Of a stretch of DNA of 64,000 nucleotides, positions 4,011 through 61,695 are shown in pieces. The notes under the pieces were generated by a model. The model was not told where the DNA came from. It searched no databases and saw only the letters and a program-made list of their open reading frames with translations. The stretch comes from Inhella inkyongensis (lineage in GTDB: Bacteria; Pseudomonadota; Gammaproteobacteria; Burkholderiales; Burkholderiaceae_C): the NCBI RefSeq assembly GCF_005952805.1, contig NZ_CP040709.1, forward strand, positions 1,364,001 through 1,428,000, in the 5' to 3' direction. Within the stretch, counting starts at the first letter, position 1. Each line of letters starts with the position of its first letter. The position numbers and the translations under genes were made by a program.

Positions 4011-5026
4011 CAGCCTTCAGCGCCTTCCTGGTGATATCGAGTTACTCGTTCGACCTCATTCCTGGAGCCCAGCACCACGGCCACGCGTTCGTGCAGCTTG
4101 GTCGGGGTGATGTCCAGGATGCGCTGGCGGCCATTGGTGGCCAGGCCGCCGGCCTGCTCGACGATGAAGCCCATGGGGTTGGCTTCGTACATCAAGCGCA
4201 GCTTGCCGGCCTTGCCCGGTTCGCGCGCGTCCCAGGGGTACATGAAGATGCCCCCTCTGCAAAGGATGCGGTGAACGTCCGCCACCATGGAGGCGATCCA
4301 GCGCATGTTGAAGTCCTTCTCGCGCGGGCCCGTGGTGCCGGCCAAGCATTCGTCGATATAGCGCGTCACGGGCGGTGCCCAGTGGCGCTTGTTCGACATA
4401 TTGATCGCGAACTCTTTGGTGTCGGAGGGGATCTTCACGTCCTTCTCGGTCAGCACCCAGGAGCCCATCTCGCGGTCCAGGGTGAACATGGCCACGCCGT
4501 CGCCCAGGGTCAGCACCAGGGTCACCTGTGGCCCATAGATGCAATAGCCGGCCGCGGCCTGCTGCTTGCCGGGTTGCAGGAAGTCCTCCTCGCTGACGCC
4601 GCGGTGGTTGTTGACCTTGCGCAGCACCGAGAAGATGGTGCCGATGCTGACGTTGACGTCGATGTTGCTGCTGCCATCCAGGGGATCGAACAGCAGCAGG
4701 TATTCACCTTGCGGGAAGCGGTTGGGCACGACGTGGATGGAGTCCATTTCCTCAGACGCCATGGCGGCCAGGTGGCCGCCCCACTCATTGGCTTCGATCA
4801 GCACCTCGTTGGCGATGATGTCCAGCTTCTTCTGCACTTCGCCCTGGACGTTTTCGCTGTGCGCGCTGCCCAGCACATCGCCGAGGGCCCCCTTGTTGAC
4901 GCTGATGGCAATGCGCTTGCAGGCGCGGGCCACCACCTCGATCAACAGACGCAGCTGCGGCGGGATATTGCCGTTGGCGCGCTGCTGCTCAACGAGGTAT
5001 TGGGTCAGGCTGACGCGGGCGCTCAT
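4010..5026 (-). CDS. fbp: Fructose-1,6-bisphosphatase, class I
   Basis: A 338-residue cytosolic enzyme removing the 1-phosphate of fructose 1,6-bisphosphate in gluconeogenesis. It matches class I FBPase throughout: N-terminal [10 protein letters not shown], the metal-binding segment [21 protein letters not shown], and the C-terminal substrate region with [16 protein letters not shown]. Length is normal for the family (about 330-340). Its start overlaps the pepN stop and its stop overlaps the next gene's start, so the three are probably co-translated. Confidence 0.97.
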
Positions 5027-15837: not shown

Positions 15838-17537
15838 AGCGGCGTGACAGCCTGCTGGCGGGCCTGGGCGCACCTTGGCTGATGGGGCGCGCGCAAGCGG
15901 CCGCGCCGGGGCCCGAGCGCTTCCAGCCCAGCACTTTGAGTCGCACGCAGCAGCAGGCCGAGTTGGACTGGTTTGCGCAAGCGGCCCAACGCTTTCGCGG
16001 CGGGCGCATCCGGGTGCTGTCCGAGATCATCGCCACCCACGAGTACGAGGCACGCGTGCTGGCGCCTGCCTTCGCGCAGCTCACCGGCATCCAAGTCGAG
16101 CATGAACTGCGCCCCGAGGGCGATGTGGTGCGCCGCCTGCGCGAGCAGATGCAGGGCGGTTCGGCGCTCTACGACGCCTTCGTCAATGACAGCGATCTGA
16201 TCGGCACCCACTGGCGCTACGACGCCACGGTGGTACTCAGCGACTGGATGCGCGGCGAGGGGCGCGAACAGACCTTGCCGACGCTGGACCTGAAGGACTT
16301 CATCGGCCTGGCCTTCACCACGGCGCCCAATGGCGACCTCTATCAGTTGCCCGATCAGCAGTTCGCCAACCTCTATTGGTTCCGTCATGACTGGTTCAGC
16401 CGACCCGATCTGCAGCGGCGTTTTCAGGCCCGTTATGGCTACCCCCTGGGTGTGCCACTGAACTGGTCGGCCTACGAAGACATTGCCGAGTTCTTCACCG
16501 ATGAGGTGCGCGAACTGGATGGCCGCCGCATCTACGGCCACATGGACTACGGCAAGCGCGACCCCAGCTTGGGCTGGCGCTTTACCGATGCCTGGCTCTC
16601 GATGGCCGGTCAGGGCAGCGAAGGCTATCCCAATGGCCTGCCGGTGGACGAATGGGGCATCCGCATGGAGGGCTGCCGCCCGGTGGGGGCCAGCGTGGTG
16701 CGCGGCGGCGGCACCAACAGCCCGGCCGCGGTCTATGCCTTGGATCGCTATCTGCACTGGATGCGCCGCTTTGCACCACCCGGTGCGCTGCAGATGGACT
16801 TCAACCAGGCCGGCCCGGTACCGGGGCAGGGCGCCATCGCGCAGCAGATCTTCTGGTACACCGCCTTTACGGCCGCCATGTCGCAGCGCGGGCTGCCGGT
16901 CAACCATGCCAATGGCCTGCCCAAGTGGCGGGTGGCACCCTCGCCGCATGGGGCTTATTGGCGCGAGGGCATGCAGCGCGGCTATCAGGACGTGGGCGCC
17001 TGGACCTTGCTGAAGAACAGCGCCCTTGAGCAGCGCCGCATGGCCTGGCTGTATGCGCAGTTCTGCGTTTGCAAGACGGTCTCGCTGGCCAAAAGCCTGG
17101 CCGGACTGACCTTCATCCGCGACAGCGACATCCGCTCGGCCGCGCTCACGCGGCTGGCGCCGCGCCTGGGGGGTTTGGTGGAGTTCTACCGCAGCCCGGC
17201 GCGCGTGTACTGGACCCCCACCGGCCCCAATGTGCCCGACTACCCGCGCCTGGCCGAGCTGTGGTGGCAGCACGTGGGCGAGGCCACGGCCGGGAGGCTC
17301 AAGCCCCAGCAGGCCATGGACGATCTGGCTGGCGCCATGGATGGCGCCCTGGGTGAGCTGGCGCGCAGCCAGAAGGGGCCCTGCGCGCCGCAGTTGCGCG
17401 CCCCTCTGCCCGAGGCCCAGTGGCGCGCTCTGCCTGGCGCGGCGCAGGCGCGCTTGGCCAACGAGAAGCCCGGCGGACGCACCATCGCCTACGAACGCCT
17501 GCTGCGCATCTGGCAGCTGGGTTCAGACCCGAAGTAG
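15834..17537 (+). CDS. ABC transporter substrate-binding protein, GlpV-like
   Basis: A 567-residue periplasmic binding protein starting at a GTG that overlaps the previous stop (GTGA). The N-terminal MKRRDSLLAGLGAPWLMGRAQA looks like a twin-arginine or Sec signal with an Ala-X-Ala cleavage site. The body (IRVLSEIIATHEYEARVLAP, AYEDIAEFFTDEVRELDG, GWRFTDAWLSMAGQG) resembles the long binding proteins of glycerol ABC transporters (GlpV). The rest of such a transporter is absent here. Its TAG stop codon is formed by the first bases of the palindromic element downstream, so the original end may have differed. Confidence 0.78.
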   Translation: MKRRDSLLAGLGAPWLMGRAQAAAPGPERFQPSTLSRTQQQAELDWFAQAAQRFRGGRIRVLSEIIATHEYEARVLAPAFAQLTGIQVEHELRPEGDVVRRLREQMQGGSALYDAFVNDSDLIGTHWRYDATVVLSDWMRGEGREQTLPTLDLKDFIGLAFTTAPNGDLYQLPDQQFANLYWFRHDWFSRPDLQRRFQARYGYPLGVPLNWSAYEDIAEFFTDEVRELDGRRIYGHMDYGKRDPSLGWRFTDAWLSMAGQGSEGYPNGLPVDEWGIRMEGCRPVGASVVRGGGTNSPAAVYALDRYLHWMRRFAPPGALQMDFNQAGPVPGQGAIAQQIFWYTAFTAAMSQRGLPVNHANGLPKWRVAPSPHGAYWREGMQRGYQDVGAWTLLKNSALEQRRMAWLYAQFCVCKTVSLAKSLAGLTFIRDSDIRSAALTRLAPRLGGLVEFYRSPARVYWTPTGPNVPDYPRLAELWWQHVGEATAGRLKPQQAMDDLAGAMDGALGELARSQKGPCAPQLRAPLPEAQWRALPGAAQARLANEKPGGRTIAYERLLRIWQLGSDPK

Positions 17538-17805
17538 GGCCTGTTCACACTAAGCGAGGCCACGCGAAAGGGTCTTGCCAGCTGGCAGCCTAGGCGCGCG
17601 GCGCTGCCCAGGCTGGACGCCTGGGCGAGCCGTGCAACGACGGATGGCGGCCGGCAAGACCCTTTCCCTCCGGGTTGCCACCAGAAAGGGCGCCCACTTT
17701 GTTGCAAAGCTCGCTGGGGCAGTGAGCCCCAGCTTCACTTCGCGCCGCGTTGGCGCCCCGTCTGGATGGCAACGCGCTGGCCTCCATTAGTGTGAACAGG
17801 CCCTA
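17535..17805. repeat. TA-flanked palindromic element, copy 1
   Basis: The element is bounded by a perfect 19-bp inverted repeat, TAGGGCCTGTTCACACTAA at 17535-17553 and its complement at 17787-17805, with TA at both outer ends. Inside are two long hairpins. Hairpin A has arms GAAAGGGTCTTGCC (17566-17579) and the complement at 17653-17666. Its core hairpin contains GCCCAGGC-TGGAC-GCCTGGGC. Hairpin B has GTTGCCA (17674-17680) with TGGCAAC (17767-17773) and an inner GCTGGGGC/GCCCCAGC. It holds no plausible gene. A second element at 52910-53182 has the same layout and a related core. It could be a miniature transposable element or a mobile structured RNA/DNA. Confidence 0.85.
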
Positions 17806-18691
17806 GAAATTCCTGCAGCAGGGCGGCCACCGCTTCGGGGCGGTCGTGATGCAGCATGTGGCCGCAGTCGCTCAGGCGCTCATGGCGCAGCTGCGGCACC
17901 ACGGCCAGGCGCTCCAGCAGGTCGCTGCGCGGGTAGCGGCGGCCGAAGTAGGCCGCCAGGCTGTCGTCCTCGCCCTCAATGAAGAGCACGGGGGCCGTGA
18001 TGCGCGCCCAACAGGCCAGCGCCTCGGCACGGCGGTAGAGCACCGCATGGCTGCGCTTGTGCACCGGGTCGGCGCACAGCTCACGGCCGCCAACTTCGCC
18101 GCCAGCGCCGGGGCGGCTCCACTGCGTGGCCAGCCAGGCGGCGCGCTCGGGGGCCAGGCGCGGGTTGGTCTTGCGCAGGCGCGCGGCCACGGCATCCAGG
18201 TCGGCGTAGGGCGCGAGGCGCGCGGGCTCACGCAACTCGTCCAGCCAGCGCGCCATGCGTTCGGGGGCCTGTTCGGGCGGGCTGTCGGGCAGGCCGTAGC
18301 CTTCCAGATTCACCAGTCGGCGCACCCGCTGCGGCCGCACGCCGGCATAGAGCATGGCCACATTGCCGCCCATGCTGTGGCCCAGCAGGTCCACCGGTTC
18401 GGTCGGGCTGATCAGGTCCAGCCAGGCTTCGAGATCGCCCAGGTAGTCCGCAAACCAATAGGCGTCACGGCCCGCGCCTTCGCTCTGCCCGAAGCCGCGC
18501 CAGTCCAGGGCCCAGATCGGGCGCTCGGTGTCCAGCGCATCCACCAGAAACTGGAACGAGGCGGCCAGATCCATCCAGCCATGCAGCAGCACCAGGGGAC
18601 TGCCCTGGCCGGGCCAGTGCAGGGCGTGTTGGCGCAAGGCTCGCAGGCTGCGGAACTCGGATTGCGGCTGGCGCTTGGGGGCGTAGTTCAT
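17735..18691 (-). CDS. Alpha/beta hydrolase
   Basis: A 318-residue cytosolic hydrolase of the alpha/beta fold. Visible are the oxyanion-hole segment LVLLHGWMDLAASF, nucleophile elbow LLGHSMGGNVAML, the acid region FIEGEDD, and the catalytic His in SDCGHMLHHDRPEAV. The substrate is unknown. The normal fold ends at about residue 296 (...ALLQEFL). The last 22 codons lie inside the palindromic element, so the C-terminal tail appears to be read-through created by its insertion. Its ATG overlaps the stop of the upstream proline-rich gene. Confidence 0.88.
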   Translation of the reverse strand: MNYAPKRQPQSEFRSLRALRQHALHWPGQGSPLVLLHGWMDLAASFQFLVDALDTERPIWALDWRGFGQSEGAGRDAYWFADYLGDLEAWLDLISPTEPVDLLGHSMGGNVAMLYAGVRPQRVRRLVNLEGYGLPDSPPEQAPERMARWLDELREPARLAPYADLDAVAARLRKTNPRLAPERAAWLATQWSRPGAGGEVGGRELCADPVHKRSHAVLYRRAEALACWARITAPVLFIEGEDDSLAAYFGRRYPRSDLLERLAVVPQLRHERLSDCGHMLHHDRPEAVAALLQEFLGPVHTNGGQRVAIQTGRQRGAK

Positions 18692-19365
18692 CGCGGTCGG
18701 GCGTGTTGGATGGCGGAGCCGGGCTTGTCATTGAAACAGCTGCCCTGCGTGTTGATGCCCACCGGGCCATCCATGGCGAAGAGGGCATTGGCGCGGTTGG
18801 TGTGCACACGGGTGCAGCTGCCATCGGGGCGGCGCGTCATGGTGCCACCGTCGGCCATTTCAATGACTTCGGCCTCGTTGCCGATGCGCCTGGCCAGTTT
18901 TTGCTCGGCGCTGAGGCGCGGGCTGTTGGCGCGCGGGTCGTGAATGGCCTGCTGTGCCGGGGTGTTGCGCGCATCAGGCTTCCAGTCCTTGGGCAGGGCC
19001 AGATTGAGGGGCGCCTTGGCCGTACTCGGCGCAGCCACAGAGGAGGCCGCCGCAGAAGGGCTTGCCAGCACCGTGATGGCATTCGGTCCGGGTGCTGCGA
19101 TGGCGAATTCGGGAATGGGCAGGGTGGCCGCCTCCGGCGTGGCCATCCGAGGCGGGAGCGCTGTGGGGGATCGGGCAAGGGGCCGAGGTGAGGGCGGCTC
19201 CACGGCGCGCGGCGGCGGGGTCAGCTCGATGAGCCGCAGTTCCACACGGGCGGGCTTCGGCTCGGGCAGGCTGCGCTGCTGAATGAGCACGCCGCCCACT
19301 CCCAAATGCAGGGCCAGCACCGCGAGCGCGGGCAGGGCAGGGCGGCGAGGGGGCTGGTAGACCAA
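18688..19365 (-). CDS. Membrane-anchored proline/alanine-rich protein, TonB-like layout
   Basis: About 225 residues. An N-terminal membrane helix (ALPALAVLALHLGVGGVLI) is followed by a proline-rich stretch (LTPPPRAVEPPSPRPLARSP) and a C-terminal domain with two cysteines (SCTRVHTNRANALF and GSCFNDKPG). The layout resembles TonB/TolA-type envelope proteins, but the C-terminus is not a recognised TonB domain. The start is uncertain. I use a TTG at 19365, which opens the membrane helix; an ATG at 19416 would nearly collide with the divergent ybaK start. The gene overlaps the hydrolase gene by 4 bp. Function unknown. Confidence 0.65.
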   Translation of the reverse strand: MVYQPPRRPALPALAVLALHLGVGGVLIQQRSLPEPKPARVELRLIELTPPPRAVEPPSPRPLARSPTALPPRMATPEAATLPIPEFAIAAPGPNAITVLASPSAAASSVAAPSTAKAPLNLALPKDWKPDARNTPAQQAIHDPRANSPRLSAEQKLARRIGNEAEVIEMADGGTMTRRPDGSCTRVHTNRANALFAMDGPVGINTQGSCFNDKPGSAIQHARPR

Positions 19366-52758: not shown

Positions 52759-52909
52759 CGCAGTCTCCGACTCAAATTACGGGCCTTGCCAATGGGGCGG
52801 GGCCGTTCGAGAGCGGGCGGATTCTGCGAGGCTAGTCTTGGCGCAAAAAGCGAGGCAAACCCGATTCGGGCAACACCTAGAGTGGAAACCCCATACCCCC
52901 CGAGGGCTA
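52759..52909. other. Leader region between the small gene and the palindromic element
   Basis: No gene seen. It probably contains the promoter of the minus-strand gene at 52510-52758. A stretch GTCTTGGCGCAAAAAGCGAGGC resembles part of the arm of the adjacent element's hairpin A but does not continue into it. Confidence 0.4.
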
Positions 52910-53182
52910 GGGAGGGTCTGCAAAACCCCCTGCGCCCGCGCCAAGACTTTTCGGGATGAGGGCCAAGGCGCGAGCCGCCGCTCAGGCTGGAGGCCTGAGC
53001 AAGGCTTGCTACGCCGGCCATCGCCCGAAAAGTCTTTGGCCCGCACGGGTTTGCGAGATAACCGGCCGTCTCGGTCGTTGGCGCGCTCGGCTGTCGGACG
53101 TCGAGTCCGACCTTCGCGCGCCGCCTACGATCCGGCCGGTTCTCTCGCAAACGCGGGCTGCAGGGGTTTTGCTGACCCTCCC
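52910..53182. repeat. Palindromic element, copy 2
   Basis: An outer stem pairs GGGAGGGTCTGCAAAACCCC (52910-52929) with 53163-53182 (19 of 20 positions) and extends inward to 52940/53152 with small bulges. Inside are two long hairpins. Hairpin A pairs GCCAAGACTTTTCGGG (52940-52955) with 53024-53040; its core hairpin is GCTCAGGC-TGGAG-GCCTGAGC. Hairpin B pairs 53049-53068 with 53133-53152 (19 of 20) and encloses GGCGCGC/GCGCGCC and GTCGGAC/GTCCGAC. No gene fits. The right end lies 7 bp from the stop codon of the receiver gene. Layout and core match the element at 17535-17805. Confidence 0.85.
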
Positions 53183-53189
53183 TACGGGG

Positions 53190-54455
53190 TTATGCGGGCA
53201 ATTGAACCGCGAGCCGGGCGCGCTCGATGCAGGCGATGAGCTCGGCTTCGGAGTAGGGCTTGCCCAGCAGCACGCTGACGCCCGCCGCTTGCGCAGCCTC
53301 CTGGCGGTCATCGGCCGAGGTGATCATGATCACCGGCAGTTCGGCAATGGCGGGCGTGGCCCGCACATGGCGGGTCAGATCAAAGCCGTCCATGCCGGGC
53401 ATCTCCACGTCGGTAATCAGGACATGGGGAGCTTGTGCGCTGAGTTTTTCGATGGCCTCTTCGGCGCTCTCGGCCAGCACCACCTGATAGCCCCGGGGCG
53501 CCAGGACGCGGCTGGTTTTGACCCGCACGACTTTGGAGTCATCCACCACCATCACCCGGGTCTCTTGGGGACTCAAGGGGCGCGAGGGTGCGGCCGCGAT
53601 CTTTGCTGCAGCGGCTTCGGCTGCGGCTTGTGCTGCGGCTTGTGCCGCCGCCTGGATCGCCAACGCCTCGGCCTGCGCTACCCGCTCGGCTTCCGCGGCG
53701 CGTTCGCGAGCAAGGCGCTCGGCCTCGGCGGCTTGCTCGGCCGCTGCCGCACGCGCGGCGGCCTCGGCCTCTACGCGCCGAGCCTCCTCCGCGGCGGCGG
53801 CCAGGGCCGCTTCTCTTGCAGCCGCCTCGGCCGCTTCAGCTGCTGCGGCTCGTTCACGCGCCTCGGCGGCCTCTTGCTCGGCGCGCGCCTGAGCTGCCGC
53901 CAGGGCGGCTTGGCGCTCCGCCTCGGCCTGTGCCGCCAGGCGTTCCGCTTCCGCCGCCGCTTGGGCTTGTGCTTGCGCGAGTGCCTCGGCTGCGAGGCGC
54001 TCTGCCTCGATCCGCGCCGCCGCTTCTTCAGCTTGGCGCGCGGCGGCTGCGCGCTCTTCGGCCGCGGCCTCGGCCAGGCGTTGTTCCTCTAGGGCCTTGG
54101 CCTGAGCCGCTGACTGGGCGGCCGATTCAGCTTCGGCCTTGCTGCGTCGATCCGACTCGACCTGCGCAGCCGCCAGGGCATAGGCCTCGGCCACCATGCG
54201 CTCTGCTTCAGCGGCCTCGCTGTCTTCAAGCGACTCTTTGGCCTCCTCTTCAGAATGCTTGAGGGCAGTGTCGGCCTGGGTGTCCGCTTGGGTATGGGTG
54301 TGGGTGTCTGCGTGGGTATCGGCCTGCGTTTCGGCGTGGACGTCCGCGGGTCGACTGTCGCTTGCTTGTTTTCCGCGCTTGGATCGGTGCCAAGCCCACA
54401 GAACCAGCACCAGGGCCAGGCCGCCGCCGAGCATCCAAATCAGATCTTCATTCAT
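53190..54455 (-). CDS. Membrane-anchored response-regulator receiver with TolA-like Ala-rich rod
   Basis: A 421-residue protein in three parts. An N-terminal membrane helix (about residues 5-22, DLIWMLGGGLALVLVLWAW) is followed by a low-complexity stretch rich in A-D-T-H (HTHTQADTQADTA) and about 220 residues of Ala/Glu/Arg-rich coiled coil like TolA. The C-terminal 125 residues are a CheY-like receiver: VMVVDDSKVVRVKTSRVL, the phospho-acceptor Asp in ITDVEMPGMDGFDL, then MITSADD and the Lys in VLLGKPYSEAEL. No output domain follows, so signalling must be by protein contact. The ATG at MNEDLIW is used. Confidence 0.88.
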   Translation of the reverse strand: MNEDLIWMLGGGLALVLVLWAWHRSKRGKQASDSRPADVHAETQADTHADTHTHTQADTQADTALKHSEEEAKESLEDSEAAEAERMVAEAYALAAAQVESDRRSKAEAESAAQSAAQAKALEEQRLAEAAAEERAAAARQAEEAAARIEAERLAAEALAQAQAQAAAEAERLAAQAEAERQAALAAAQARAEQEAAEARERAAAAEAAEAAAREAALAAAAEEARRVEAEAAARAAAAEQAAEAERLARERAAEAERVAQAEALAIQAAAQAAAQAAAEAAAAKIAAAPSRPLSPQETRVMVVDDSKVVRVKTSRVLAPRGYQVVLAESAEEAIEKLSAQAPHVLITDVEMPGMDGFDLTRHVRATPAIAELPVIMITSADDRQEAAQAAGVSVLLGKPYSEAELIACIERARLAVQLPA

Positions 54456-54567
54456 GGTCAAGTCAGCGTTGGCGCCGGGACCGGGGCGGCGCTTTCGGGT
54501 GCTGGGGCGTCAGCATAGCAACGCAGTGCCGGTATCCGGGCGTTGTTGACGCTCCGACTGGCCGGCT

Positions 54568-56838
54568 TCAAATGGCCAGGGCCGCCTCATCCGAGGGGCT
54601 GGTGTGCTCCAGCTTGGCCCAGAGGGCCAGGCCGCCACTCAAGCTCCAGGCTTGCTCATGGCCCAGGCGGCGCAGGGCCCGGGCTGCTTGCAGGCTGCGA
54701 TTGCCACTGCGGCAAACGAAGAGCAGGGGGCGCGGCGGCTGCTCGGGCAACCAGTCAGGCAGGTGATTGATCAGGGTGGAGAGGGGCGCGTTCAGCGCCG
54801 GGCAGGCCGGCTCCAGCACCTGGGGCGCACTCAAACGTTGCTCATAAGGCTCGCGCACATCGATCCAATGCGCGTTGGGGTGCTGGCGCAGCCAGGCCCT
54901 TAGTTCGCTGGGGTCCAACTCCAGCGGGCCGCTCTCAATTTGGGTGGGCTGCGGCGCACCGCAGGCCAAGGTCTGATAGACCGTCGGTGCCAGATTGCGT
55001 TCCAGCACAGCCTTGCTGGCGGCGAATCCGTTGGCATCGAGTTGGCCGTTCAGCACCTTGCTGAGTAGCGGCTGCTGGGCCGATTCGGTGCGCAGATTGG
55101 TGGCCAGGCGGCGGTCATAGTCATGCGCCGGCAAAAGCAGCAGGTCAGGCCCAAGGGTCTGGGCCAGAAGTTGCAAGGAACCGGCGTAGGCCAGGGGGGC
55201 GCTGCGCTCAAAGTCGCTGCGCCCCAGCGCGCCGGGCAAGACGGTGTCGCCGACAAAGGCCAGGCGCAGGCTGCCGGTGTCGCGCAGCAGGTAAGCGGTG
55301 GAGTCTTGCGTGTGGCCGGGCAGCGGCAGGCGTTGCAGCGTCCGTGCGCCCAGAGGGATGATCGTCTGCCCTTCGGGCCAGCCCAGCGAGTTAATGGGCA
55401 GCGCGTCAACGGCCAGCGGGTTCATCAAGGCCTCGCGCAGTGTGCCCGCCACGCTTTCATGATCGGCGTGGCTGTGGGTGTCCAGCACCGCACGCACTTG
55501 GGCTTGCTGACAGCTCAGCCATTGAAGCAGGTGATCAAACAGCTCGGGCAGCGGATCGATCACGACGCATTGCCGGCTGGCGGCATCGACCACCACATAG
55601 CAACAGGCGCCATCGACCTCGAAGCGGGTCACGCCGTCGGTCAAGGGCAGGGGATCGGTGTGGCTGCCCAGGCAGCATGCCCGCAGGGCCTCGCCGCAAC
55701 TGCGGATGCGTGCGCAGGCGTCGTCAATGAAGAGCTGGTTGACGGCCGGCCCGAAGGAGAGCCGTACGGCGGAGTCAGCCTGCCAGGCTGGCAGCCCCAT
55801 GGCCTGCAACACATGGCTGGGCTGGGCCTTGCTGGCATTGCAGGCCGAGCCCCCGCTGACACGCACCTCGGCGGCGTCGAACAGGTCGAGCAGCAACTTC
55901 GAGCTCAGCCCGGGCACCGAGAAATTGAGCGTGGTGGGCAGGCAGATGGCCGGCGGTGCGTTAAAGCACAGACCGGTGAAGGCGGCTTGCAGGGCTGCGC
56001 TCAACTGCTCGCGGTAAGCCTGAAGAACGGGCAGGGGTTTGAAGCGCTGGCCTTCTTCCAGCGTGGCCAGCACGGCACCCAGGGCGGCAATGCCCGACAT
56101 GTTTTCGGTCCCCGAGCGTCGCGCACCCTCTTGGCCGCCGCCGGCCAGCAGAGGGGTGAAGGGTGCTCCCTCGCGCACATACAGCAGGCCAATGCCCTTG
56201 GGGGCGTACAACTTGTGCCCGGAAAAGGCTGCGTAATCGATGCGCAGCGCGCCCAGTTGGAGTGGCAGCTTACCCAGGGCCTGTACGCCGTCGACCAGCC
56301 ACAGCGCCGGGCTGTCGGTCAGGGCGGTGGCGATGCCGCTCAGGTCGCTGATGACGCCGCTCTCGTTGTTGGCGGCCATGGTGCAGACCAAGCCGGCGCG
56401 CGGCGCCCGTTGCTTTAGCCATTCAAGATCATGGCGTCCATCGCTGTGGACGGGAATGGCCTGGATCTCGAAGTCCAGCCCCAGCAACTCATTCCAGTGG
56501 CGCAGGGACTCCGGCACCACCTTGTGTTCGGTGGCGCCGTAGAGCAGCAACCAAGGCTGGCCGTCCGGGCTCGGGCGACGGCGCAGCGCGTGCAGGGCTG
56601 AGAGAACAGCGGTCTGGATGCCCTCGGTTGCGCCGCTGACGAACAGCAACTGGCCCGTGGGTGCGCCCAGCACCCGGCGAGCCAGCGCACGCACGCCGTC
56701 CACCAAGGCGCGGGCCTTCAGGCCGCTGCTATGGATGCTGCTGGGGTTGCCGTAGTCGTCGGCCATGGCCGCCAGCGCGGCGGCGCGGGCGCGCGCCAGC
56801 ACCGGCGTGGTGGCATTGGCATCGAGATAGATTTCCAT
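54568..56838 (-). CDS. Cysteine desulfurase / persulfide dioxygenase-like / rhodanese three-domain fusion
   Basis: A 756-residue protein with three sulfur-handling domains, each with its catalytic residues. Residues 1 to about 390 are a NifS/IscS-type cysteine desulfurase: LDANATTPV start, PLP-site His in GATEHKVV, PLP Lys209 in SGHKLYAPKG, and catalytic Cys333 in GGSACNAS. Residues about 400-640 are a metallo-beta-lactamase fold of the ETHE1 type: HSHADH (455-460), PGHTQDS, FVGDT and LPAHDYD. Residues about 650-756 are a rhodanese with Cys709 in CRSGNRS. It could take sulfur from cysteine as persulfide, oxidise it or pass it on. The pilin gene lies 54 bp downstream-upstream in the same direction. 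The domain calls are firm; the combined reaction is inferred. Confidence 0.9.
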   Translation of the reverse strand: MEIYLDANATTPVLARARAAALAAMADDYGNPSSIHSSGLKARALVDGVRALARRVLGAPTGQLLFVSGATEGIQTAVLSALHALRRRPSPDGQPWLLLYGATEHKVVPESLRHWNELLGLDFEIQAIPVHSDGRHDLEWLKQRAPRAGLVCTMAANNESGVISDLSGIATALTDSPALWLVDGVQALGKLPLQLGALRIDYAAFSGHKLYAPKGIGLLYVREGAPFTPLLAGGGQEGARRSGTENMSGIAALGAVLATLEEGQRFKPLPVLQAYREQLSAALQAAFTGLCFNAPPAICLPTTLNFSVPGLSSKLLLDLFDAAEVRVSGGSACNASKAQPSHVLQAMGLPAWQADSAVRLSFGPAVNQLFIDDACARIRSCGEALRACCLGSHTDPLPLTDGVTRFEVDGACCYVVVDAASRQCVVIDPLPELFDHLLQWLSCQQAQVRAVLDTHSHADHESVAGTLREALMNPLAVDALPINSLGWPEGQTIIPLGARTLQRLPLPGHTQDSTAYLLRDTGSLRLAFVGDTVLPGALGRSDFERSAPLAYAGSLQLLAQTLGPDLLLLPAHDYDRRLATNLRTESAQQPLLSKVLNGQLDANGFAASKAVLERNLAPTVYQTLACGAPQPTQIESGPLELDPSELRAWLRQHPNAHWIDVREPYEQRLSAPQVLEPACPALNAPLSTLINHLPDWLPEQPPRPLLFVCRSGNRSLQAARALRRLGHEQAWSLSGGLALWAKLEHTSPSDEAALAI

Positions 56839-61460: not shown

Positions 61461-61695
61461 TTTCGCAGTCTAAAGCAAAGGCCGGGTGACCCTTAGGGGG
61501 GCAAAGGCGGGTGCTACAGTCGGCGCCCCGGTCAGTGTGTTCGCATTCGGACCGGTCTGAATTTCTAGAGTTTGCCCTTTCTGTAGCCCTTCCCGTCCCC
61601 CTTACGGGTCGCAATCCGCTAACCGGTCTGGCCGTGTCGCGGAAGGTTCAATAACCAGCCAATTGCTTTGGAAACCGAAGCGTGAGGTCAGCGAA

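What the first reader, a model, noticed from the sequence alone, without database searches (positions are those of the whole stretch)
52910..53182. Second element with the same architecture and base-pair-preserving changes in the core: a candidate undescribed structured repeat family
Both elements have an outer stem enclosing hairpin A then hairpin B. Arms differ in sequence but pair in each. The hairpin-A cores align without gaps for 52 columns after AGGCGCG, with about 36 identities. Differences keep pairing: GCTCAGGC/GCCTGAGC versus GCCCAGGC/GCCTGGGC, and GCGAGCC/GGCTTGC versus GCGCGGC/GCCGTGC (one C-G to G-C swap and A-T to C-G). This is the sign of selection on a fold, as RNA or single-stranded DNA. 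Each lies beside a gene's stop codon.
Basis: partly seen in the sequence, partly recalled or inferred. Interest (0 to 1): 0.85.

Follow-up and report, generated by a model that had tools for sequence, protein, structure and literature searches.

The report
Mobile double-hairpin repeat with conserved core
The feature is one copy of a small mobile DNA element that folds into two bulged hairpins; the same hairpin core turned up in many bacteria, several phyla among them, in elements with quite different ends, which suggests that the fold does something useful that has still to be worked out.

Summary
The 52910-53182 element and its partner at 17537-17803 fold far better than shuffles, and their hairpin-A cores match at 36 of 52 columns. 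Both are multicopy MITEs, about 270 bp long: 16 A-type loci and eight full-length B-type copies in this 4.08-Mb genome. The "outer stem" is a pair of terminal inverted repeats, mostly between TA or YTAR duplications. One empty site in a congener shows insertion at a stop codon. Five IS5-family insertion sequences in other genomes carry matching ends (15-18 of 18 bases).

Hairpin B is an inverted, diverged hairpin A. The bulged core (C-WA-GGC-GC / GC-AAC-GCC-G) recurs in 129 of 250 genomes sampled from the family, in other classes of the phylum, and in named Streptomyces, Planctomycete and Omnitrophota records. Compensatory changes are massive (covariation 0.57 against 0.165±0.009 shuffled). 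Wobble asymmetry suggests each hairpin is selected on the strand entering from its own end. Rfam has no match and ten full-text searches found no description; ISfinder was not available. What the hairpins do is inferred: probably an RNA-level transcript-end or insulator role, less likely single-stranded DNA.

The parts
52908..52909 (.). left copy of TA target duplication
   Evidence: sequence; flanks printed for 26 copies, 33 entries
52910..52940 (+). left terminal inverted repeat, type A1 (GGGAGGGTCTGCAAAACCCCC...)
   Evidence: inverted repeat I1; 20 of 22 matches of the A1 end pattern in the genome lie at element copies
52943..53036 (+). hairpin A, folded on the + strand
   Evidence: perfect outer arms; R1 101.4 bits in L001, R2 79.7 bits at 52944-53032; this copy is in the training set of both models, so the scores are by construction
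52964..52971 (+). 5' side of conserved core: C-AA-GGC-GC (two-base bulge)
   Evidence: alignments A1, A3
53008..53016 (+). 3' side of conserved core: GC-TAC-GCC-G in this copy (three-base bulge; AAC in most relatives)
   Evidence: alignments A1, A3
53040..53049 (+). centre between the hairpins, CCCGCACGGG; a CCC-NNN-GGG centre read by eye in several relatives
   Evidence: sequence; relatives; the RNA MFE draws only a 2-bp hairpin here
53055..53145 (-). hairpin B: inverted, diverged copy of hairpin A
   Evidence: R1 hit on the opposite strand, 37.8 bits, E 2.7e-6 (L001:1656-1746); hairpin B was not used in training; R2 on the window did not list it at E up to 1
53152..53182 (-). right terminal inverted repeat
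   Evidence: inverted repeat I1
53183..53184 (.). right copy of TA target duplication
   Evidence: sequence
53190..54461 (-). flanking gene with C-terminal response-regulator receiver domain (PF00072); its stop codon faces the element
17535..17536 (.). left TA of the partner element; also the first two bases of the TAG stop of the upstream gene
   Evidence: empty site in G004
17537..17562 (+). partner element, left TIR, type B (GGGCCTGTTCACACTAAG...)
   Evidence: another member of this TIR class (L164) matches the ends of IS5-family element L213 at 18 of 18 bases
17566..17666 (+). partner element, hairpin A
   Evidence: R2 51.0 bits (a training sequence)
17667..17675 (+). partner element, centre CCCTCCGGG
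   Evidence: sequence
17681..17769 (-). partner element, hairpin B (inverted hairpin A)
   Evidence: opposite strand: R2 34.3 bits, E 4.4e-7; R1 42.4 bits; not a training sequence
17778..17803 (-). partner element, right TIR
17804..17805 (.). right TA of the partner element

Best explanation
SHOWN: both features are copies of non-autonomous insertion elements (MITEs), about 270 bp long, with IS5-type terminal inverted repeats and TA or YTAR target sites. The body is two inverted copies of one bulged hairpin around a small centre. SHOWN STATISTICALLY: the hairpin is under selection as a single-stranded fold. Stems covary freely; the bulged core (5' C-WA-GGC-GC, 3' GC-AAC-GCC-G) is nearly fixed. 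Each hairpin prefers G.U/G.T over A.C on the strand running inward from its own end. INFERRED: movement was driven in trans by IS5-family transposases. The core does not depend on the transposase, because its carriers have ends of different IS5 subgroups and it was not found in the IS5-family elements examined. It therefore most likely works through a widespread host factor. MECHANISM COMMITTED TO (probability about 0.4): the hairpin acts in RNA. A transcript entering from either flank meets a correctly oriented bulged hairpin first, which ends, insulates or protects the transcript, so the element is tolerated at gene ends and persists. The confidence below is for identity plus selected fold, not for this mechanism.
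For: Dispersed repeat: 16 A-type loci, seven near-complete at 94-100% identity, and eight full-length B-type copies at 78-100%. TA/TA flanks in 10 of 10 B copies with both ends readable; identical 4-bp YTAR flanks in 3 of 5 A2 copies; identical dinucleotides in 6 of 10 readable A1 copies. Empty site in congener G004: joined flanks align through without an element, with a stop codon at the junction. Five DDE_Tnp_1 elements have TIRs matching element ends at 15-18 of 18 bases (shuffled maxima 13-15); five other IS candidates match at 10-11. The five are NCBIfam IS5_4 or IS5_3, and R1 finds no core inside them. Hairpin B = inverted A in 61 of 97 sources. Covariation: 91.0% of cells paired against 67.4%, score 0.572 against 0.165±0.009, slid controls at most 0.105. 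Wobble on the + strand, 85 elements: hairpin A G.T 61-67, A.C 21-30; hairpin B G.T 24-26, A.C 58-59; MFE strand difference P 4e-9 and 0.002.
Against: No RNA data. No intrinsic-terminator or promoter pattern in either element. The wobble asymmetry is no stronger in halves facing a gene's 3' end (45 to 26) than in halves facing a 5' end (53 to 24; P 0.49), so it is not tied to the local gene. In the model-fitted alignment it is strong for hairpin A (137 to 18) but weak for hairpin B (34 to 25, one column giving 20 of the 25). The convergent-gene preference of this genome (15 of 24 fully called copies) is absent elsewhere (11 convergent, 48 tandem, 15 divergent of 74). No DDE_Tnp_1 transposase was found in this genome or in 5 of 20 element-bearing relatives, so the mobiliser here is not seen. 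4 of 10 readable A1 and 2 of 5 A2 copies lack matching flanks, and many copies elsewhere do.
Confidence: 0.85

Rival explanations
1. The hairpin works as single-stranded DNA. The strand with its 5' end at each element end folds (during replication or transposition), and the bulged hairpin is bound by a replication or transposition factor.
For: The asymmetry is two-fold symmetric about the element centre, as transposon ends are, and is independent of the direction of the neighbouring gene. G.T is also a mild mismatch in DNA (recalled).
Against: The core is shared by elements with TIRs like those of different IS5 subgroups and was not found in those IS, so it is not a site of one transposase. 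No ssDNA transposase partner is known here, but none was searched for.
Confidence: 0.3
2. No function: long palindromes are kept perfect by template switching (quasipalindrome correction), and copies spread only through their terminal repeats.
For: Explains compensatory changes without selection. The elements are repeated and mobile.
Against: Correction would erase bulges, yet the two opposed bulges and flanking GC pairs are the most conserved positions, also in 96 hairpin-A rows chosen by model score and not by motif. Strand-specific wobble is not predicted. Tip length varies while the core does not.
Confidence: 0.12
3. The conserved core belongs to an unrecognised autonomous element (its recombination or target site), and the IS5 ends are secondary passengers.
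For: Forms read by eye as single-hairpin palindromes with other ends occur in Streptomyces and Endozoicomonas records. TIR class changes 18 times on the interior tree against a minimum of 8 for nine classes.
Against: TIR class mostly follows interior ancestry (18 changes; 60 label shuffles gave a mean of 42.9 and a minimum of 38). I saw no gene linked to the core in the stretches I read, but did not search for one systematically.
Confidence: 0.1
4. Ordinary Rho-independent terminators or REP-type repeats.
For: GC-rich hairpins close to stop codons.
Against: No terminator-like site with a T-run; TIRs and target duplications; 270-bp plan. The GTAG tag of REPs (PMC3733652) is not among the invariant columns.
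Confidence: 0.03

Closest known systems
MITEs of IS origin, type II (review PMC10969869, sections 2, 3 and 4.2 read)
   Same: Under 500 bp, no gene, TIRs shared with an autonomous IS, target duplications, intergenic, multicopy, transcript predicted to fold.
   Different: The review says type II MITEs share only their TIRs with the IS and that MITEs are typically AT-rich. Here the GC-rich interior is itself conserved, symmetric and covarying across many genera and several TIR classes.
ERIC, Correia, QMITE2 and similar structured bacterial MITEs (same review)
   Same: Palindromic intergenic elements; the review places QMITE2 primarily in 3' untranslated regions.
   Different: Nothing I read describes an inverted pair of bulged hairpins with this core. 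Not compared base by base here.
REP / GTAG and CGTC palindromic repeats (PMC3733652, abstract start and passages seen)
   Same: Short structured repeats in intergenic DNA with varying stems.
   Different: REPs are 20-40 bp, tagged at one end and often associated with RAYT genes; here 270 bp with IS5-type TIRs and a CAAGGCGC/GCAACGCCG core.
Integron attC sites (definition recalled)
   Same: Single-strand hairpins recognised through unpaired bases, variable stems, conserved short boxes.
   Different: Boxes differ: the invariant CAAGGCGC/GCAACGCCG does not fit RYYYAAC/GTTRRRY.
Archaeal bulge-helix-bulge RNA motif (recalled)
   Same: Two small bulges on opposite strands flanking a short helix.
   Different: Here bacterial, bulges of 2 and 3 nt, in a mobile element; no known processing enzyme. 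Resemblance only.

Membership tests
MITE (non-autonomous IS derivative) | short, multicopy, no coding capacity | tested here: met
   about 270 bp; 16 A-type and eight full-length B-type loci; the codon model calls no gene lying inside either window element
MITE (non-autonomous IS derivative) | terminal inverted repeats | tested here: met
   TIR alignment score of at least 18 in 80 of 92 other elements scanned
MITE (non-autonomous IS derivative) | target-site duplication | tested here: met
   TA/TA in 10 of 10 B copies with both ends readable (seven further B entries are fragmentary); 4-bp YTAR in 3 of 5 A2; 6 of 10 readable A1. Many copies in other genomes lack clean duplications
MITE (non-autonomous IS derivative) | empty site in a relative | tested here: met
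   one site tested: G004 aligns through the B site without the element; G003 carries a different insert there. The 52910 site was not tested
MITE (non-autonomous IS derivative) | an autonomous IS with the same ends | tested here: met
   five IS5-family elements in other genomes match MITE ends at 15-18 of 18 bases; none found in this genome, and no IS was found with exactly the A1 end of the 52910 element
MITE (non-autonomous IS derivative) | actual mobilisation | not testable with these tools
   needs an in vivo assay
Rfam families (release 15, 4227 models) | match at gathering score | tested here: not met
   whole window: sucA and two tRNAs elsewhere; 52880-53210, relaxed: best E 3.5
Rho-independent terminator | hairpin followed by T-run | tested here: not met
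   0 found in either element
REP / REPIN | GTAG tag and RAYT association | tested here: inconclusive
   GTAG is not among the invariant columns of A3; RAYT proteins not searched
Integron attC | RYYYAAC / GTTRRRY boxes | tested here: not met
   invariant core in A3 does not fit, by reading; box definition recalled

The most novel reading that the evidence does not exclude
The hairpin is a previously undescribed, cross-phylum structured nucleic-acid module: two opposed bulges around a 3-4 bp GC helix, recognised by a host factor common to many bacteria. Selfish insertion elements carry it, usually as an inverted pair so that either strand presents it, and combine it with the ends of different IS5-type transposons. 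It makes insertions tolerable, for instance by handling transcripts that run into the element.
Probability: 0.4. Interest if true: 0.88.

Novelty: new variant of a known kind. Interest (0 to 1): 0.74.

Why it matters
MITE interiors are generally treated as leftover DNA. Here the interior holds the most conserved positions, varies by compensatory changes, and keeps a bulged motif across many genera and several phyla while the ends change. That makes it a good handle on an open question: what do folded inserts do for the elements that carry them and for the genes they abut? It would also give annotators a covariance model for a common repeat class in Burkholderiales and beyond that Rfam 15 does not hold.

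Tried and rejected
Convergent-gene hypothesis: a first look that scored only inward-reading frames made copies look convergent. With a six-frame codon model it holds in this genome (15 of 24 fully called copies; background 9 of 52 adjacent pairs; P 1.5e-4) but not elsewhere (11 of 74). Dropped as a general rule. Two cruder gene callers were superseded by that model.

Stop-codon targeting: 14 of 26 copies here make a stop exactly at the junction, against 3 of 34 non-coding YTAR sites (or 16 of 131 TA sites) in the window. Insertions in the last codons of a gene can also create such stops, because the element begins TAG, so I do not claim active targeting.

Free end-swapping: rejected in the strong form; TIR class largely follows the interior tree (the unshuffled count was).

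Cargo between two far hairpins: the inverted pair 3.8 kb apart in G003 (L135) is two separate copies. Plasmids (both elements) and phages (partner element only): no blastn match. A motif regex over loci was too noisy and was replaced by BLAST-defined hairpins.

Dropped rows: 21 of 30 hairpins went into A1. A3 holds 79 rows: 55 of 65 motif-selected loci (ten, mostly weak, left out), two window copies and 22 model-selected rows; core invariance in the 55 is by choice of the search pattern, stems are not. Of 94 elements listed for context, 2 were too short and 12 of the remaining 92 had no clear TIR. In the IS-end comparison 11 of the 15 loci with an inverted-repeat candidate (of 30 scanned) were used; L212, L223, L226 and L227 were left out, and four A-type ends from the congeners were added to the MITE end pool by hand. 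One A1 copy (R1632892, first) had unreadable flanks.

Literature: ten full-text searches showed no description of the core or of its ends as an element; the library is open-licence papers only, most listings were seen as titles and abstract starts, and ISfinder was not available. The Polaromonas MITE paper cited in the review is not held.

Full report
WHAT IS THERE. Its outer stem is a 33-nt inverted repeat, and the whole folds 15 standard deviations better than shuffles. The partner is 17537-17803. The two hairpin-A cores share 36 of 52 columns; no shuffled or palindrome-keeping control reaches the match.

IT IS A DISPERSED, MOBILE ELEMENT. In the window's own genome (G000, 4.08 Mb) BLAST finds 16 A-type loci and eight full-length B-type copies plus fragments. 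The covariance model R1, built from 21 hairpin-A sequences, gives 35 matches in G000: 28 with E at most 1.4e-7, six antisense shadows and one weak partial. A-type copies fall into two sets by their ends: A1 (GGGAGGGTCTGCAAAACC, 11 copies) and A2 (GGAAGCGCTGAAYAAG, 5 copies). One pair compared (L001, L011) has interiors 88.5% identical and outer 33 columns 72.7% and 45.5%. All ten B copies with both ends readable are TA-flanked; A2 copies show 4-bp YTAR duplications in 3 of 5; A1 copies show identical dinucleotides in 6 of 10. At the B site congener G004 aligns through the junction without an element and has a stop codon at the insertion point; G003 has a different insert there, without an R1 match.

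WHO MOVES IT. PF01609 transposases were not found in G000; other transposase families were not searched. The A1 end occurs in G000 almost only at element copies (20 of 22 matches; the other two have three mismatches, and the backwards control gives one). In 20 element-bearing relatives PF01609 is found in 15. Of 30 loci fetched there, 15 gave an inverted-repeat candidate and 11 were compared. Five have ends matching MITE ends at 15-18 of 18 bases: L213 (TAGGGCCTGTTAACACTA, 18 of 18 at both ends, its right end at a contig end), L203, L207, L217, L215. Shuffled ends reach 13-15; five others reach 10-11; L220 (IS1182) reaches 14, no better than its shuffles. NCBIfam names the five IS5_4 or IS5_3. 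R1 finds no core in them. The best-matching MITE copies lie in other genomes than the IS, so the pairing is by end type, not proven in one cell. No IS with the A1 end of the 52910 element was found.

THE BODY. In 61 of 97 sources R1 hits a second hairpin on the opposite strand within 30 nt of the first, both window elements included. The plan is TIR, hairpin, small centre (often CCC-NNN-GGG, read by eye), inverted hairpin, TIR. It is plainest in G236, where both hairpins score about 70-75 bits. L236 was read by eye as a shorter single-hairpin form.

DISTRIBUTION (R1, one genome per species, own genome counted in each tally). Family: 129 of 250 genomes, 92 of 141 genera (E up to 1e-3). Order: 79 of 300. 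Class: 50 of 369. Phylum: 34 of 398, 16 of them outside the class (E up to 1e-4). The plain-DNA search with the A element matched only 7 of 100 genomes, so sequence search alone misses most of the family. Hosts include Comamonas, Acidovorax, Variovorax, Polaromonas, Methylobacillus, Halothiobacillus and Endozoicomonas. Records titled Streptomyces, Planctomycete, Acidobacteria and Omnitrophota also match: 25-47 bits with R1 where matched, 43-62 bits with R2. R2 was trained on three of these loci (L245, L261, L304); L268, L320, L251, L319, L322 and L273 were not in it, and second copies in L273 and L288 were not motif-selected either. Some metagenome bins may be misassigned. In viral contigs the motif occurs in 7 stretches, 5 confirmed by R1, against 1 for the pattern read backwards.

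SELECTION ON THE FOLD. On MAFFT alignment A3 (79 sequences, not fitted to a structure) 19 of 23 predicted pairs have double compensatory changes. For a 25-pair structure, set by me from that prediction and the single-sequence fold, 91.0% of cells pair (shuffled 67.4±0.7), with 457 doubly changed cells (151±11) and a covariation score of 0.572 (0.165±0.009; slid structures at most 0.105). The number of pairs with any double change (19) is not unusual in the shuffles (85 of 500). Relatedness is not modelled by the shuffles. Stem III shows all four Watson-Crick types. The core barely varies: 5' C-WA-GGC-GC and 3' GC-AAC-GCC-G; in 96 hairpin-A rows chosen by model score [AT]AGGCG is present in 89 and GCAACG in 79.

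WHICH STRAND. With G.T pairing forbidden, single mismatches inside helices were counted on both strands' structures for 85 elements. Hairpin A, + strand: G.T 61-67, A.C 21-30. Hairpin B, + strand: G.T 24-26, A.C 58-59, the reverse. Each hairpin thus looks selected on the strand that runs inward from its own end. One RNA containing both hairpins is not what is selected; two inward-reading RNAs, or the two 5'-end DNA strands, fit. In the model-fitted alignment the bias is strong for hairpin A (137 to 18) and weak for hairpin B (34 to 25, with 20 of the 25 in one column). A repeat on a differently cut set, each half read inward, gave 98 to 50, with no dependence on the direction of the neighbouring gene.

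GENE CONTEXT. With a codon model trained on the window, 24 of 26 copies in G000 are called on both sides: 15 convergent, 9 tandem, 0 divergent, against 9, 34 and 9 of 52 adjacent pairs in the window. In 80 other elements: 11, 48 and 15, with 6 half-called. Where a gene reads into the element its end lies within 10 nt of the element end in 52 of 73 cases; values of -4 to -6 there include frames that simply run on into the element. The gene callers are home-made, so these are trends.

HOW IT MOST LIKELY WORKS. Movement by IS5-family transposases in trans is inferred from ends and target sites. The hairpins are shared by elements with different transposase-type ends and recur in other phyla, so I infer a host-facing function. 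An RNA-level role on transcripts entering from either side is my first choice (about 0.4), single-stranded DNA second (about 0.3), neutral palindrome upkeep third; the fixed bulges argue against the last.

COMPARISON. It meets the tested features of a MITE. It is not an Rfam family, shows no Rho-independent terminator pattern, and does not fit attC boxes. The review PMC10969869 (sections 2, 3 and 4.2 read) and passages of PMC3733652, PMC4853749 and PMC4853030 describe nothing with this core. IS5-group target and end facts not cited to a call are recalled.

Noticed in passing
G000 copies L008, L009, L015, L016: Four A-type copies carry a further palindrome of about 70 bp at the tip of hairpin B (...ACAAACAGTCC / GGACTGTTTGT...), and L015 also has a 27-bp palindrome in its hairpin-A tip. 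They share the CAGTCC/GGACTG stem and look like nested insertions.
   Followed up: no
L135 3638-4615 (-), element at 4486-4755: In congener G003 a copy overlaps the start of an ORF whose sequence reads like an integron-type tyrosine recombinase (by eye, not tested).
   Followed up: no
window 17735-17803: The reading frame of the alpha/beta hydrolase gene (17735-18697, -) runs past the element boundary and ends inside the partner element, so the insertion may have changed its C-terminus.
   Followed up: partly
window 61609-61693: sucA RNA motif (RF01070, 84.4 bits) on the + strand, the only Rfam match in the window besides two tRNAs.
   Followed up: no
window 54568-56838 (-): A 756-aa ORF reads like a fusion of a cysteine-desulfurase-like, a metallo-beta-lactamase-like and a rhodanese-like part (by eye; no family search run).
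   Followed up: no
PMC4853030, PCR primer T679RIGHT: A published Xanthomonas oryzae junction primer begins with AGAACCTGTTCACGATCT, identical to the 18-base end of element L174; it may sit in an IS or MITE end.
   Followed up: no
viral contigs L365, L367, L368, L369, L371: Five of seven IMG/VR stretches with the motif also match R1, so such elements occur in contigs classed as viral.
   Followed up: no
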